Shown here: positions 7,712 through 53,307 of the stretch, one piece after another
Position numbering within the stretch: position 1 is the stretch's first letter
How the letters are laid out: every line of letters starts with the position of its first letter
Source: Streptococcus mitis
GTDB taxonomy: Bacteria; Bacillota; Bacilli; Lactobacillales; Streptococcaceae
Direction of reading: 5' to 3'
Assembly: GCF_016658865.1 (NCBI RefSeq)
Contig: NZ_CP067992.1
Location: forward strand, 1,321,001 to 1,385,000
DNA: 64,000 nt
Made by a program: the position numbers and the translations under genes
The notes under the pieces: generated by a model
What the model was told of the DNA's origin: nothing
What the model saw: only the letters and a program-made list of their open reading frames with translations
Database searches by the model: none

Positions 7712-7731
7712 AGACTATTTGAGTAAGTATT

Positions 7732-7819
7732 GGAAGATTACTCAAGAGGCTTAAGAGGCCGTGTTGGAAACGCGGTAGGCGTGTAACAGCGTGCGTGGGT
7801 TCGAATCCCATGTCTTCCG
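7732..7819 (+). tRNA. tRNA-Ser (anticodon GGA)
   Basis: An 88-nt class II tRNA with a seven-pair acceptor stem (GGAAGAT with GTCTTCC), anticodon loop TTGGAAA, long variable arm and intact T-arm GGTTCGAATCC. CCA is not encoded. The original terminator downstream is split by the IS element. Confidence 0.97.
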
Positions 7820-7876
7820 TTTATTTTAAAAAAGATACCCAAGAATGTACTGACCCCAAAAAGTTAGACAATTAAT

Positions 7877-31056: not shown

Positions 31057-32355
31057 CTATAAACCATAATCAGAACGTCTGCGGACGGTTGCTTTCCCAC
31101 CTTCGATACATTGAAGGCTGTAACGCAAAGCATCCATCAAGTGGTTGTTTTTATCTTCTGGTTTGTTCAACCAGTTGCCTTCTTTATCTCGTTGGTAGCA
31201 GTAACTATAAAATTCATCCATGATATGTTCACAACTCGGATGTACATAAATAGCGTATCCTTGTAACTTGGACACGCCTGCCATAATACTATCCTTACCT
31301 TTACGACTCTCTTTAATTCGAGTTATACCATGTTCTGACCTTAATTCCTCAATCAGTCGTAATTCAGCGCTATCAGCGATAATCCGTGAGCGATGATAAC
31401 CTTTGTCTTTTATCATCTTCGCAACTTCTTTGGTTATCAATCCAACTTTATACGCCTCGTCAAAGACATAAATCTCTTTCGTCGTATCATTTATCAACGA
31501 ACAACACAAAGCGGTTGGATCATGAGTGAAACCAAAGTCAAGACCGATACATAACTTATAAGCTGAATCTTGTAGTAATTCATCTTTATTGAATTCTTTG
31601 ATAGTTACGTTCTCATAGATTAAACCTTCAGCAACTCCCCACTCACCATCACAAACGATTCTCGCACGTCTTGGGTTCGTATGATACAAATCCTCATAAC
31701 GCTTGATATCGACTTCATCCAGCCACTCATTGCATTTATAAGTGGTAGTAATAGCGAATGTATCAGCTCGTCTCGTATCTTCATCAAAGAAGACACGCTT
31801 GAGCCAGTGCCTTTCATTCCACGGGTTAAACGTAATTGTAATCTGTTTAAAGAAATCAGGTACGTCTAAGCTACCACGGATTGACTCAACTACTGTACTG
31901 AACTTATCTTCAGTTTCGATTTGATACGCTTCCTCAAACCATGCCCAGCATAGACTACCGACATCGACCGTAATAGATGTGATTTTAAGTTCATCATCTA
32001 AACCACGGAATAGGATTTTTTGGCCAGTTGCTTTTACAGTTATTTCGGGTAAGGACTCGTTAAATTTAAATAAATGAGTCACACCCAACACATTACACGC
32101 CCATTTAAAATCCGTATAGGTCGATTGCTTGTTCGTATTCGAATATCTACGAATAACAAGCAAGTTAGCCCAGGGATATTTTAAAAGACGGATAACATAA
32201 TTCAATGCAGTTGTCTTGGACTTCTTCGAACCACGGGACCCTTTGACTACACGATAAAGACTTCTTGAGCGCCAAAACTGGCCGTATCCACTGCCTACTA
32301 CCTTAGGTAGGTCAATAACAATATCATTCTGTTTAATCTGGTATTTCTGACTCAT
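31057..32355 (-). CDS. Terminase large subunit, PBSX family
   Basis: 432 residues from ATG 32355, inside the end of the small subunit gene. ATPase: Walker A variant GSRGSKKSKT (about 40), Walker B-like SLCWAWFEEAYQ near 140. RNase H-like nuclease: IGLDFGFTHDPTA, IIADSAE, and NHLMDALRY at the end. Cuts and pumps DNA into the head. Confidence 0.95.
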   Translation of the reverse strand: MSQKYQIKQNDIVIDLPKVVGSGYGQFWRSRSLYRVVKGSRGSKKSKTTALNYVIRLLKYPWANLLVIRRYSNTNKQSTYTDFKWACNVLGVTHLFKFNESLPEITVKATGQKILFRGLDDELKITSITVDVGSLCWAWFEEAYQIETEDKFSTVVESIRGSLDVPDFFKQITITFNPWNERHWLKRVFFDEDTRRADTFAITTTYKCNEWLDEVDIKRYEDLYHTNPRRARIVCDGEWGVAEGLIYENVTIKEFNKDELLQDSAYKLCIGLDFGFTHDPTALCCSLINDTTKEIYVFDEAYKVGLITKEVAKMIKDKGYHRSRIIADSAELRLIEELRSEHGITRIKESRKGKDSIMAGVSKLQGYAIYVHPSCEHIMDEFYSYCYQRDKEGNWLNKPEDKNNHLMDALRYSLQCIEGGKATVRRRSDYGL

Positions 32356-32773
32356 TTGCAAACACCACCGTTCCAGAAACGTCAGCCTCTACCTTGTCAG
32401 TCCAGAGTCTATGACGTTTTCCTAATAGTTCGGCTGCCTTGATTCTGTCTTTTGCTCCAACATCTATATCCGTAATCGTTTGACCCAATTCTCCGATGCT
32501 TATCAAAGTCTGTTCTTGCGTCTCCCCTCGCATTACTGAGGTTAGATAACTAAGGACTTCTTGCTGGCCTGCGATTTTCTCAGAATCAAGTTGTTTCAGT
32601 CGTTCATCTATATAGCTTTTAATCTTAGGATTCTTTAGTAATTTATGCCCTTCGACACCTGCCACTCTATCGCTAGAAGCACGATAACCTGCTTTCTTAT
32701 AGGCTTCCGTCGCATTACCTGAGATGATGTACTCATCTGCAAATCTCTTTTGTTTTATTCTCAATCCACTCAA
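32333..32773 (-). CDS. Terminase small subunit
   Basis: 146 residues if translation starts at the TTG at 32773 (SD GGTGG); no ATG gives a sensible start. Begins SGLRIKQKRFADEYI, the Terminase_2 opening, with a helix-turn-helix (NATEAYKKAGY). It recognises the packaging site and loads the large subunit. The gene lies immediately after the tRNA-like and structured-RNA segment. Confidence 0.88.
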   Translation of the reverse strand: MSGLRIKQKRFADEYIISGNATEAYKKAGYRASSDRVAGVEGHKLLKNPKIKSYIDERLKQLDSEKIAGQQEVLSYLTSVMRGETQEQTLISIGELGQTITDIDVGAKDRIKAAELLGKRHRLWTDKVEADVSGTVVFANESEIPD

Positions 32774-32865
32774 TTTTCCATCACCACCTTTCGACAAAAT
32801 AAAAAGCCACACAATGTGCGACCTTTTTAAGACCTCTCTCTGCGAATTAAAATCGCAATTGGAAC

Positions 32866-32939
32866 GACAGGATGCGAACCTGTGACGTCTCAATTCCCTA
32901 AACAGGATTTAATCCGTCTACCATATATCCATTAATCAG
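32866..32939 (-). other. tRNA-like element 2 (degenerate)
   Basis: On the minus strand a perfect T-arm (ACAGG-TTCGCAT-CCTGT) is followed by GTTCCA, and 72 bases upstream is TGGATA, which pairs only partly. A TGGTAGAC segment resembles a Leu-type D-loop, but the acceptor stem has at least three mismatches and no acceptable anticodon loop is seen. Remnant or tRNA mimic rather than a working tRNA. Confidence 0.5.
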
Positions 32940-32944
32940 CATGA

Positions 32945-33700
32945 GACTACTGCTTTAAGCGAGTGACTTTCGATAACTTATAGTTTATTATCTTGTCCAC
33001 AAATATTCCTACTTGTATCACTCATGCACGATTGGTTAGACCAATCACTCCTTACATCACAAACTACTAAGCCATTTTTCAATTAACGAAGACCCCGCTA
33101 AAAGTCTAAGCTGCTTTACTCTTTGACTTTACTCTTATCCTTGCGAGACTTGAGCAGGCAATCTAATTGCCGAAGTACACTTTCGTTTGTGACGGGCGAT
33201 GACTTTTGCTTTTTTGAGTTTTTTCTATCTTGAATAGCCTTAAAATATAAAAATCATCTTTTATCTATCACAGACACGCATCGCCATGTGTTTCATTCTC
33301 TTTTGAAGAACCAAATCCACAGCGCCTGCTTGTTATCGATTGTTTTGCGGACAATCAACTCACCTTACATACTTTTGGGAGGCGCCCAATTTTTGTAAGA
33401 TATGGTATTAAGCTCTTGTTGCACCTCGAACCAAATACCTCTTTCCTCTTATAGACTCGTCTCACAGCCAAACTGCCACGTTTGCATTTCCTCAACACCC
33501 TTGCCGTTGGAATCTTTTCTGCTTTAACTTCGCCTACCTATTCCAAAACTGAAATAGTTAAGATTAAATTGCTTAGATTGACCATTGCTGGCAGGATGTT
33601 TGATAGATTTAAAAACATCCTTTTCCTGAGTTACCACAGATTATCTAGGCTAAGCCCTAAAAATGCAAGGCGACTACAACCTTGCGAGTTAATTACGTTA
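32945..33700 (-). ncRNA. Candidate large structured RNA (GOLLD/ROOL-like class)
   Basis: About 750 bases with no credible gene on either strand but dense inverted repeats: GCAAGG/CCTTGC (33665-33685), a nine-pair helix 33593-33601 with 33613-33621, CAAC/GTTG (33492-33509), CTTACA/TGTAAG with inner TTGGG/CCCAA (33364-33399), GATTGT/ACAATC (33338-33356), a distant helix GGCGATG 33195-33201 with CATCGCC 33279-33285, GGCAAT/ATTGCC (33157-33171), GATTGGT/ACCAATC (33030-33046). The loop at 33380-33384 (AGGCG) is complementary to 33322-33327. Minus strand is preferred because the neighbours and the late promoter run that way and a C(UUCG)G hairpin lies upstream. Class assignment is inference from place and architecture. 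Confidence 0.6.
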
Positions 33701-33702
33701 GA

Positions 33703-33831
33703 TTATTTATAAACAACAATATATGTCGGTTTATTCTTAATCATTACAGGTTCTTTGATACACAACAATTCTTTTACAGTTTTCGCAAATTGTTTTGCAT
33801 CTTCCAATTTATTAAACATTGCTTGCTTCAT
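33703..33831 (-). CDS. Small phage protein, 42 residues
   Basis: ATG at 33831 with GAGG-T seven bases upstream. MKQAMFNKLEDAKQFAK, ending IKNKPTYIVVYK. Basic, helix then strand. It lies between tRNA-like element 1 and the structured segment. A longer reading from 33912 would run through the tRNA-like element and lacks an SD, so it is rejected. Confidence 0.55.
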   Translation of the reverse strand: MKQAMFNKLEDAKQFAKTVKELLCIKEPVMIKNKPTYIVVYK

Positions 33832-33863
33832 TTTAAATACCTCGTTGCAAAATACAATATTAA

Positions 33864-33927
33864 CGGCGATGTCCGGAATCGAACCGAAAAAAATACATAG
33901 GAGATAAACCACTTACCTGTCACCGCC
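33864..33927 (-). other. tRNA-like element 1 (shortened anticodon arm)
   Basis: Minus strand: acceptor GGCGGTG pairs fully with CATCGCC; D-arm AGGT-AAGTGGTTT-ATCT; T-arm TTCGG-TTCGATT-CCGGA. Only 13 bases lie between D- and T-arms instead of about 23, so no normal anticodon stem-loop can form. 64 nt in all. It could fold as a tRNA mimic but cannot decode. Confidence 0.65.
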
Positions 33928-33930
33928 ATG

Positions 33931-33946
33931 TGAGGCCGAAGCCTCA
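33931..33946 (-). other. C(UUCG)G hairpin before tRNA-like element 1
   Basis: On the minus strand TGAGGC-TTCG-GCCTCA, a stable UUCG tetraloop only in this orientation. No T-run follows, so it is not a terminator; more likely part of an RNA leader. Confidence 0.6.
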
Positions 33947-33949
33947 GAA

Positions 33950-34027
33950 ATAAAATGAAAAATATAAGGAGTCATCAGTGCGCTTACCGCTTTCAGCTGA
34001 TAATACTATTTTATCAGATTAGAATCA
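33950..34027 (-). promoter_or_regulatory. Probable late promoter region
   Basis: The only gap between the sigma-like late regulator and the packaging genes. It has an inverted repeat CTGATA-n9-TATCAG (34000-34020) and no consensus -35, as expected for an activator-dependent late promoter. Inference from position. Confidence 0.4.
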
Positions 34028-34453
34028 TCATTTACTATCGTTGGTATCAAACATTTTGGATAATTTAACTAAAGCTCTTGCCTGCGCCCTTTGAATAGTA
34101 GCAGGACTGCATTTCAATTTGCGTTCAATTTCATTCCACGTCAATCCATTGATGTAGATGAGTCTCATCACAAGACTCTCAACTGGGTCTTCCAGTGACT
34201 CAATCAATCGAACCAACTCATCGCGTTCACGATATATACCTTTGATTTCCTCGTATAACTGTTCTGACTTATCGATAATCAAAACATTTAATTCCTCAGT
34301 CTTGTTTTTATTATCCTTGGCTTTTGGCATACTATCGAAGGTCTGTCCTTTTAAAATTCCTGAACGCAAGCTAATCAATTCCTGATGCTTTGACATAGCC
34401 TTAATATCTATGTACTTCAAACCTTTTAATCTCTGTTTAATATCTACTGTCAA
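34028..34453 (-). CDS. Sigma-70 region 4-like late transcription regulator (DUF1492/ArpU-type)
   Basis: 141 residues. N-terminal coiled coil (RERDELVRLIESLEDP) then sigma region 4-like helix-turn-helix: LIYINGLTWNEIERKLKCSPATIQRA split over residues 98-123. Proteins of this kind (RinA/ArpU/DUF1492) sit just before the terminase and switch on late genes. Overlaps the preceding gene by ATGA. Confidence 0.85.
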   Translation of the reverse strand: MTVDIKQRLKGLKYIDIKAMSKHQELISLRSGILKGQTFDSMPKAKDNKNKTEELNVLIIDKSEQLYEEIKGIYRERDELVRLIESLEDPVESLVMRLIYINGLTWNEIERKLKCSPATIQRAQARALVKLSKMFDTNDSK

Positions 34454-34839
34454 TCATACACCTCGATTCCAAAAAATGTGCAGATATCTTCCGCTTCACA
34501 TTCGGAAATTTCCAAACCTCTCTCCCAACAACTTATGATTGTTGAGGGATATCCTAAATGCTTTGCTAGTTCTGTACGAGTAAGACCTTGCTCCAAACGT
34601 TTTTCTTTCAAGAGCGCATTAAGATTTCCAATCTCGCACTTCTTGAATAAAACATCTCTGTCCAATCCTAACTCTTTTGACAGACGTTCTTTCTGACGAT
34701 CACTTGGTATCAGACCTCGTTCCCAATTTAAAAATGTCCTTGGACTAATACCAAATCTCTTTGAAGCTTTTCTTAAAGATAGACCTTTACCAATTCGCCA
34801 TAATCTAATCTGTTCTGAGAAAAATATCCTATTCTTCAT
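34450..34839 (-). CDS. Double helix-turn-helix (XRE) regulator
   Basis: 129 residues from ATG 34839 (SD GGAGA). Two XRE-like domains: IGKGLSLRKASKRFGISP and EQGLTRTELAKHLGYPS, each followed by a similar xxWERGL segment, suggesting internal duplication. May act with the sigma-like gene downstream in late control. Confidence 0.75.
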   Translation of the reverse strand: MKNRIFFSEQIRLWRIGKGLSLRKASKRFGISPRTFLNWERGLIPSDRQKERLSKELGLDRDVLFKKCEIGNLNALLKEKRLEQGLTRTELAKHLGYPSTIISCWERGLEISECEAEDICTFFGIEVYD

Positions 34840-51608: not shown

Positions 51609-51669
51609 AAAAGACAACAAAAAAAATCCCCACGCTCTCAAACTTTGGCGAGTCTGAGCATGAGGATTA

Positions 51670-51713
51670 GCAGTATAGTAAAAGGCATTAAAAAGCCCTC
51701 TTTACTATACCCA
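51670..51713 (+). other. Long hairpin leader before the integrase
   Basis: Arms GTATAGTAAA-GGC and GCC-TTTACTATAC. Followed closely by AAATGAGGT and the ATG, so it may control access to the integrase start or end the upstream transcript. Confidence 0.5.
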
Positions 51714-52931: not shown

Positions 52932-52961
52932 CCAAGGAATGCAAAAGAATGCAAAGGAATA

Positions 52962-52980
52962 ATGGAGCCGGTGGGAGTCG
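52962..52980. repeat. Attachment site, right, inside ssrA
   Basis: Same 19 bases as 10977-10995. Here the sequence continues as an unbroken tmRNA. Confidence 0.9.
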
Positions 52981-53307
52981 AACCCACGTCCAAACATCTG
53001 CTAACATATTTGTCTACAACCATAGGTTATGTATTCGTTTAACAGTCCCTCGACACATAACTCAAGCCTAGAAACCGCGAGTCTATCAATCTCTTATCAA
53101 GCCGCTAGACAAGACTTAATCGTATCTCGCTAATAATAAGACCTGTCATTGAACACGAGCAATCCAAATCGGGTCACGCCTGCTGGTTTTTAGGCAGCTA
53201 GAGCGTAAGAAGTGTTATTTTTTGCAGTTATATTTAACTGAGCGTTTACGTCGCCACACGAGTCGCAAAATATGCCTCATAATGCCTGTCGAATCCGTAA
53301 CGACCCC
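52964..53307 (-). ncRNA. ssrA: tmRNA
   Basis: 344 nt, starting GGGGTCGTTACGG and ending in GGTTCGACTCCCACC with encoded CCA. The tag frame (53190-53225) reads AKNNTSYALAA then stop, the streptococcal proteolysis tag. Frees stalled ribosomes. The gene is still whole because the phage brings or regenerates the same 3' end. Confidence 0.97.

What the first reader, a model, noticed from the sequence alone, without database searches (positions are those of the whole stretch)
32945..33950. Large structured non-coding RNA candidate beside the terminase, framed by two tRNA-like elements
Seen: about 750 bases without a credible gene, yet with at least eight helices of 6-11 pairs (listed in the feature), a distant helix 33195-33201/33279-33285, and a 6-base loop complement (33380-33385 with 33322-33327) that would make a pseudoknot. 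Two other hairpins have complementary loops (TTAGA at 33157-33171 and TCTAA at 33030-33046 on the minus strand). Known: giant ornate RNAs GOLLD and ROOL occur in phages of Firmicutes, are 500-900 nt and often lie beside tRNAs; some form RNA multimers. Inferred: this segment is such an RNA, first product of the late operon. It may be a divergent or new class.
Basis: partly seen in the sequence, partly recalled or inferred. Interest (0 to 1): 0.88.

Follow-up and report, generated by a model that had tools for sequence, protein, structure and literature searches.

The report
GOLLD giant RNA between tRNA-like elements
The stretch encodes GOLLD, an already known giant phage RNA that can assemble into hollow cages; the newer point is that in streptococcal phages its ends often lie against tRNAs or stripped-down tRNA remnants, which suggests that tRNA-trimming enzymes cut it out.

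Summary
Minus strand 32938-33330 matches Rfam GOLLD (RF02032) over the whole model, 273.6 bits. With its 5' domain the RNA spans about 32938-33662. Close copies (94-96% identical) in pneumococcal phages are already annotated GOLLD, so it is no new class.

The flanks are the newer part. In Streptococcus phages 13 of 15 non-redundant 3' flanks carry an acceptor stem plus T-arm starting 3-17 nt after GOLLD (0.085 expected by shuffling); 9 of 21 5' flanks (10 at a slightly lower score) carry one ending 4-5 nt before GOLLD (0.025 expected). Several have no anticodon arm; the smallest is a 32-nt minihelix. I infer that RNase Z and RNase P cut GOLLD out.

Against: such elements also occur in phages without GOLLD; 63 of 75 non-redundant 3' flanks outside this Streptococcus set lack one; and the window's copy is the weakest case: 4 of 7 acceptor pairs in its 3' element, and its intact 5' element lies 202 nt away.

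The parts
32938..33330 (-). GOLLD RNA, 3' domain
   Evidence: Rfam RF02032, 273.6 bits, full model; covariation in 34 copies of its last 125 nt
33331..33662 (-). GOLLD RNA, 5' domain; 5' end inferred to within a few bases from where conservation starts in Streptococcus relatives
   Evidence: alignments; consensus fold with double changes
32860..32931 (-). degenerate tRNA-like element, starts 7 nt after GOLLD's 3' end; T-stem 5 pairs, acceptor only 4 of 7 pairs
   Evidence: sequence, fold; not called by ARAGORN
33665..33685 (-). hairpin GCAAGG/CCTTGC just before GOLLD's 5' end; in GOLLD-less phages EJ-1, Javan308, Javan326 it lies directly before a tRNA-like element
33703..33831 (-). possible 42-aa reading frame between the hairpin and the 5' tRNA-like element
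   Evidence: frame seen; no Pfam or PHROG match
33865..33927 (-). tRNA-like element, 63 nt: acceptor 7 of 7, T-stem 5 of 5, T-loop TTCGATT, no recognisable D or anticodon arm
   Evidence: found on L001, the window's own genome; also in EJ-1 and IPP24
34028..34453 (-). late regulator, DUF1492 / sigma-70 region 4 type
   Evidence: PF07374 34.3 bits, phrog_36
32333..32893 (-). terminase small subunit (longest frame; the true start is probably internal)
   Evidence: PF03592
31057..32361 (-). terminase large subunit
   Evidence: PF04466, PF17288

Best explanation
The segment is a GOLLD RNA of a streptococcal prophage (shown). It is probably transcribed in the late operon ahead of the terminase genes (inferred from gene order) and would assemble into an RNA-only cage as another GOLLD does in published cryo-EM work (inferred from membership). 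In this phage group its ends are probably made by tRNA-processing enzymes (inferred): RNase Z cutting after an upstream tRNA or tRNA-like element frees the 5' end, and RNase P cutting before a downstream one frees the 3' end. Elements that lost the anticodon arm but keep the acceptor/T-arm helix, which I recall as the minimal substrate of these enzymes, would be kept for processing rather than decoding. Separate odds: it is GOLLD 0.97; such processing in the streptococcal group 0.55; in the window's own copy, whose flanks are degenerate or distant, 0.35.
For: GOLLD identity. Covariation. 3' flanks: 13 of 15 non-redundant streptococcal flanks score 16 or more of 17 for acceptor plus T-arm starting 3-17 nt after GOLLD, shuffles expect 0.085; 5' flanks: 9 of 21 score 16 or more and L293 scores 15, all ending 4 or 5 nt before the same GOLLD position, shuffles expect 0.025; random places in the same loci pass in 7 (5' type) and 21 (3' type) of 1440. 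ARAGORN does not call the 5' elements of L018 (45 nt), L331, L019, L350 (32 nt) and L293, nor the 3' elements of L007, L009, L311, L264, L298, L307, L308. The 5'-type element takes 24 distinct forms of 31-78 nt; 21 keep 7 of 7 and 3 keep 6 of 7 acceptor pairs. No CCA is encoded after the 13 streptococcal 3' elements.
Against: The minihelices also occur in GOLLD-less phages: only 12 of 97 places have a GOLLD end within 900 nt, plus 2 that begin with the GOLLD 5' sequence on cut contigs. 11 of 21 streptococcal 5' flanks have no abutting element. Outside this set 63 of 75 non-redundant 3' flanks lack one, and 45 of 75 have TTTT in the first 9 nt, which suggests other end formation. The window's 3' element has 4 of 7 acceptor pairs and a T-loop unlike its relatives'; it does not reach the score used. 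Four of the ten 5' elements (L018, L331, L019, L338) are related forms. The 3' element of L007 that ARAGORN misses is called tRNA by Rfam at 48 bits. No transcript or cleavage data.
Confidence: 0.5

Rival explanations
1. The flanking elements are decaying tRNAs of a phage tRNA island. Their T-arms persist because they serve as short homology for module exchange at DNA level; GOLLD is one module exchanged at these joints, and no processing depends on them.
For: The window's 3' element shares only its T-arm and acceptor half with a tRNA-like element of EJ-1, Javan308, Javan326 and Javan336, and L480, L327 and L350 carry two halves of different T-stems joined at the loop: recombination within the T-arm. 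Real tRNAs stand in the same slot in phiARI0399 and Javan316. GOLLD near tRNA islands, with a pseudo-tRNA inside it, is reported in mycobacteria (PMC6582537, passages).
Against: Free recombination does not explain the fixed 4-5 nt spacing at the 5' end or why the 5' acceptor strand still pairs in forms of 31 to 78 nt.
Confidence: 0.28
2. GOLLD's ends are set by its own promoter and terminator; the tRNA-like neighbours do not matter.
For: 45 of 75 non-redundant 3' flanks outside the streptococcal set have TTTT within 9 nt of the last hairpin, as do 7 of the 15 streptococcal ones.
Against: In 13 of 15 streptococcal 3' flanks an element follows within 17 nt. I did not test promoters.
Confidence: 0.2
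3. The mini-tRNAs have a function of their own, such as decoys for tRNA-acting enzymes, and their contact with GOLLD is a by-product of sharing a slot.
For: They are common in GOLLD-less phages and occur two or three per leader.
Against: No direct evidence; exact spacing at GOLLD's 5' end.
Confidence: 0.15
4. The segment is a divergent or new class of giant RNA.
For: Its 5' half lies outside the Rfam model.
Against: Full-length model match at 273.6 bits; GOLLD annotation in close relatives.
Confidence: 0.01

Closest known systems
GOLLD RNA (Rfam RF02032)
   Same: Full match of the 3' domain model, covarying structure, phage location, total length near that of published members (744 and 833 nt listed in PMC12248019, passages).
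   Different: Only in the flanks: a degenerate tRNA-like element directly after the 3' end, and in relatives anticodon-less mini-tRNAs at either end.
GOLLD in mycobacterial tRNA arrays (PMC6582537, PMC9569102; passages)
   Same: GOLLD among tRNA genes, with a pseudo-tRNA.
   Different: There the pseudo-tRNA is reported within the GOLLD gene; here elements abut the ends. I did not examine the mycobacterial loci.
tRNA punctuation and tRNA-like 3' ends (mitochondrial transcripts; MALAT1 with mascRNA) - recalled, not from any call
   Same: A tRNA or tRNA-like structure marks the end of a long RNA and is cut by RNase P and RNase Z.
   Different: Cleavage is only inferred here; phage setting; elements as small as 32 nt.

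Membership tests
GOLLD (RF02032) | Match to the curated covariance model above the gathering score | tested here: met
   273.6 bits against 150, positions 1-416 of 416
GOLLD (RF02032) | Covarying conserved structure | tested here: met
   23 of 29 pairs with double changes in the 3' end over 34 copies; 86 of 183 pairs over 15 full-length copies
GOLLD (RF02032) | Encoded in a phage or prophage | tested here: met
   Terminase, portal and capsid genes beside it; relatives in phage records
GOLLD (RF02032) | Assembles into an RNA-only 14-mer cage (shown for one member, PMC12286853, section 7 read) | not testable with these tools
   Needs cryo-EM or mass photometry
GOLLD (RF02032) | Expression rises during lysis | not testable with these tools
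   No transcript data; reported for GOLLD in PMC12286853
ROOL, HEARO, OLE | Match to their Rfam models | tested here: not met
   None listed in 32400-34600 up to E = 5
tRNA-punctuated RNA (works like) | Acceptor/T-arm element directly at the RNA's ends | tested here: inconclusive
   Met in 13 of 15 3' flanks and 10 of 21 5' flanks of relatives; the window's own 3' element keeps 4 of 7 acceptor pairs and its intact 5' element is 202 nt away
tRNA-punctuated RNA (works like) | Cleavage by RNase P and RNase Z at these sites | not testable with these tools
   No cleavage or end-mapping data

The most novel reading that the evidence does not exclude
Streptococcal phages keep a non-coding slot, usually between the late regulator and the terminase, in which structured RNA modules (GOLLD in some, shorter unnamed ones in others) are punctuated by anticodon-less mini-tRNAs, down to a 32-nt acceptor/T-arm minihelix. 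Host RNase Z and RNase P read these as cut sites, so that the late transcript is diced into defined RNAs, GOLLD cage monomers among them; exchange of modules at the T-arms makes this an interchangeable RNA cassette.
Probability: 0.35. Interest if true: 0.75.

Novelty: new member of a known kind. Interest (0 to 1): 0.42.

Why it matters
GOLLD forms one of the largest known RNA-only assemblies and its function is unknown. If its monomers are cut out by tRNA-processing enzymes, its true ends can be defined, its maturation becomes testable with two well-studied enzymes, and the long-noted tRNA neighbourhood gets a cause. The series of shrinking tRNA-like elements is also a natural experiment on how little of a tRNA is kept when decoding is given up.

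Tried and rejected
New RNA class: rejected. Pseudoknot 33380-33385/33322-33327 and TTAGA/TCTAA pairing: not conserved. Coding: the 42-aa frame 33703-33831 has no Pfam or PHROG match and lies outside GOLLD.

Wider sampling: GOLLD in 10 of 295 genomes of the family sample, all the same genus, in 1 of 398 of the phylum sample and 1 of 250 of the class sample, that one being the window's own genome both times; the order-level search never ran. ROOL as a comparison for the flank test was not examined (one search failed).

Limits of the flank counts: one search kept 90 of 216 places; 25 score 16 or more against 0.36 for shuffles and 2.3 per 90 for random places, but three of the 25 have a mis-assigned acceptor (L229, L264, L005). 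After looking at those flanks I narrowed the offset to 20 nt and widened the element to 135 nt; before that change 11 of the 15 streptococcal 3' flanks were correctly found, after it 13. The controls used the changed settings. One search used the 75 of 216 places that have the streptococcal 5' start (48 distinct, thinned by shared 8-mers to 21 and 15); thinning does not remove kinship. Its random places were taken on the stored strand of each locus, not always GOLLD's. A boundary-free 5' scan of 52 non-redundant upstream regions found elements in 10: 5 abut GOLLD (all streptococcal), one is the window genome's distant element, 4 are not streptococcal and do not abut. Of the 12 of 75 other flanks with an element, L136 is probably spurious. 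The loci were fetched with a pattern that fixes the acceptor's 3' strand, so only its 5' strand could vary; 97 of 99 matches had enough upstream sequence; L447 and L477 are probably unrelated to the streptococcal set. The gene order is not universal: in S. suis phage Javan565 GOLLD lies after the terminase, before the portal.

Papers: PMC12286853, sections 7-9, passages (19) and outline (12). PMC6582537, PMC5643018, PMC12515178, PMC6064168, PMC9569102, PMC12248019: passages only. The 2009 GOLLD paper, a 2017 RNA survey and the 2020 mycobacterial GOLLD paper are not held and were not seen. Searches listed no paper that I could recognise, from titles and abstract starts, as proposing this processing; most subscription papers are not in the library, so this is not proof of absence.

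Full report
What is there. A scan of the whole window against Rfam 15 gives GOLLD (RF02032) at 32938-33330, minus strand, 273.6 bits against a gathering score of 150, model positions 1-416 of 416. In 32400-34600 the only other matches up to E = 5 are three weak ones far below their cut-offs. The window's genome holds one copy; 10 of 295 genomes sampled from the family hold one, all of one genus. All 34 phage records that match the region (some only in its flanks) are Streptococcus phages, and 4 of the 34 carry the annotation GOLLD there. The object is a known RNA.

Extent. Rfam models only the 3' domain. In Streptococcus relatives conservation starts sharply at a GGGCTTAGCC-type sequence, which puts the window's 5' end near 33662 and the length near 725 nt. 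The consensus fold of 15 relatives has 183 pairs, 86 with double changes in at least one sequence. For the last 125 nt over 34 copies, including many environmental phage contigs, 23 of 29 pairs have double changes and 92.2% of cells pair, against 69.7% after shuffling.

The distant helix holds in relatives: its one position with double change is GC in 8, AU in 6 and GU in 1 of 15. The pseudoknot and the loop-loop pairing hold only in the window and L004 of 15. Published work describes GOLLD loops that make contacts between subunits of a 14-mer cage (PMC12286853).

Surroundings. Upstream is a DUF1492/sigma-region-4 regulator, downstream the terminase subunits and the portal. A similar order, GOLLD ahead of the terminase, is seen; in S. 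suis phage Javan565 GOLLD instead lies after the terminase and before the portal.

Flanks in relatives. I scored an element out of 17 for a 7-bp acceptor stem, a 5-bp T-stem and a TTCRA T-loop. Of 216 places with a GOLLD 3' end, 75 have the streptococcal 5' start (48 distinct). Of 15 non-redundant 3' flanks, 13 score 16 or more with the acceptor starting 3-17 nt after GOLLD; shuffles expect 0.085. The other two are of the window's type, with a degenerate element at that place. Of 21 non-redundant 5' flanks, nine score 16 or more and one (L293) 15, all ending 4 or 5 nt before the same GOLLD position; shuffles expect 0.025. Random places in the same loci pass in 7 and 21 of 1440. Settings were adjusted once after looking at the flanks; with the earlier ones 11 of 15 3' flanks were correctly found. 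No CCA is encoded after the 13 streptococcal 3' elements or after the ten 5' elements, the case in which RNase Z acts in Gram-positive bacteria (recalled).

Elements that cannot decode. ARAGORN does not call the 5' elements of L018 (45 nt), L331, L019 and L350 (32 nt) and L293, nor the 3' elements of L007 (58 nt), L009, L311, L264, L298, L307 and L308; several others are ordinary tRNAs for Ser, Tyr, Arg, Trp or Phe. Rfam does call the L007 element a tRNA, at 48 bits. In 97 places the 5'-type element takes 24 distinct forms of 31 to 78 nt; 21 keep 7 of 7 acceptor pairs and 3 keep 6; 21 keep 5 of 5 T-stem pairs and 3 keep 4. The fetching pattern fixes the 3' acceptor strand, so only the 5' strand was free; its changes mostly keep pairing through G-U. 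This fits selection on an RNA helix without decoding, though most of these forms are related.

Results against. Of those 97 places only 12 have a GOLLD end within 900 nt, and 2 more begin with the GOLLD 5' sequence on cut contigs. A 141-nt stretch that includes the element matches 68 phage records, 49 over at least 80% of it. In the six I opened the slot holds other non-coding sequence with further mini-tRNAs and hairpins; Rfam lists there only a tRNA in L420 and weak tmRNA-fragment matches in L418 and L419. So the elements are not peculiar to GOLLD; GOLLD is at most one of several RNAs set between them. Eleven of 21 streptococcal 5' flanks lack an abutting element. Outside this set 12 of 75 non-redundant 3' flanks have an element within 20 nt, one probably spurious, and 45 of 75 have TTTT in the first 9 nt. 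T-arms also serve as joints for recombination: L480, L327 and L350 combine halves of different T-stems.

The window's own copy. The element at 32860-32931 keeps its T-stem but 4 of 7 acceptor pairs, and its T-loop (TTCGCAT) differs from the TTCGAGT or TTCGAAT of its listed relatives. Its T-arm and acceptor half is shared with a tRNA-like element of GOLLD-less phages EJ-1, Javan308, Javan326 and Javan336, so it looks like a recombinant joined within the T-arm. Before GOLLD stands a hairpin, 33665-33685, that in those phages lies directly before the tRNA-like element: they show the slot without GOLLD. The well-formed element at 33865-33927 is separated from GOLLD by 202 nt and a 42-aa frame. The processing model is therefore weaker here than in the S. 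agalactiae or S. suis phages.

Conclusion. GOLLD is established. Release by RNase Z and RNase P best fits the fixed 5' spacing, the missing anticodon arms and the kept acceptor helices, at about 0.55 for the group and 0.35 for this copy. It remains inference: no transcript or cleavage data were available.

Noticed in passing
L417-L422 about 990-1560; many of L423-L499: GOLLD-less streptococcal phages carry, after the 5' mini-tRNA, a mosaic of short hairpin modules and further mini-tRNAs of about 41-43 nt ahead of the next gene. Rfam has no family for the modules (six loci scanned).
   Followed up: partly
L431 near 6838 (minus) against L460 and L438: A 43-nt mini-tRNA has acceptor arms GGGCTT/AAGCCT in L431 but AGACCT/AGGTCT in L460 and L438, changes on both sides that keep the stem.
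   Followed up: no
L012, L013, L015, L016, L420: A conserved tRNA-like element with an odd anticodon arm: ARAGORN calls it tRNA-??? in L013, L015, L016 and L420, Rfam calls it tRNA at 38-44 bits in all five.
   Followed up: partly
window 33703-33831, minus: A 42-aa frame with a plausible ribosome-binding site between the 5' tRNA-like element and GOLLD; no Pfam or PHROG match.
   Followed up: partly
environmental phage loci such as L130, L174, L201: After GOLLD's last hairpin comes a T-run, a short ATGGAGCCACCGGTAAA-like stretch and then a GGGAC...GTCCC hairpin followed by T's, which looks like an intrinsic terminator.
   Followed up: no
window 51622-51705 minus; 52960-53307 minus; 7731-7820 plus: Other RNAs: Spy779816 small RNA (70.5 bits, just over its cut-off of 67), tmRNA (tag AKNNTSYALAA) and tRNA-Ser(gga).
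   Followed up: no
L020 2900-2977: The 3' element after GOLLD in S. uberis phage Javan636 is called tRNA-Stop with anticodon tta, a possible suppressor-like tRNA.
   Followed up: no
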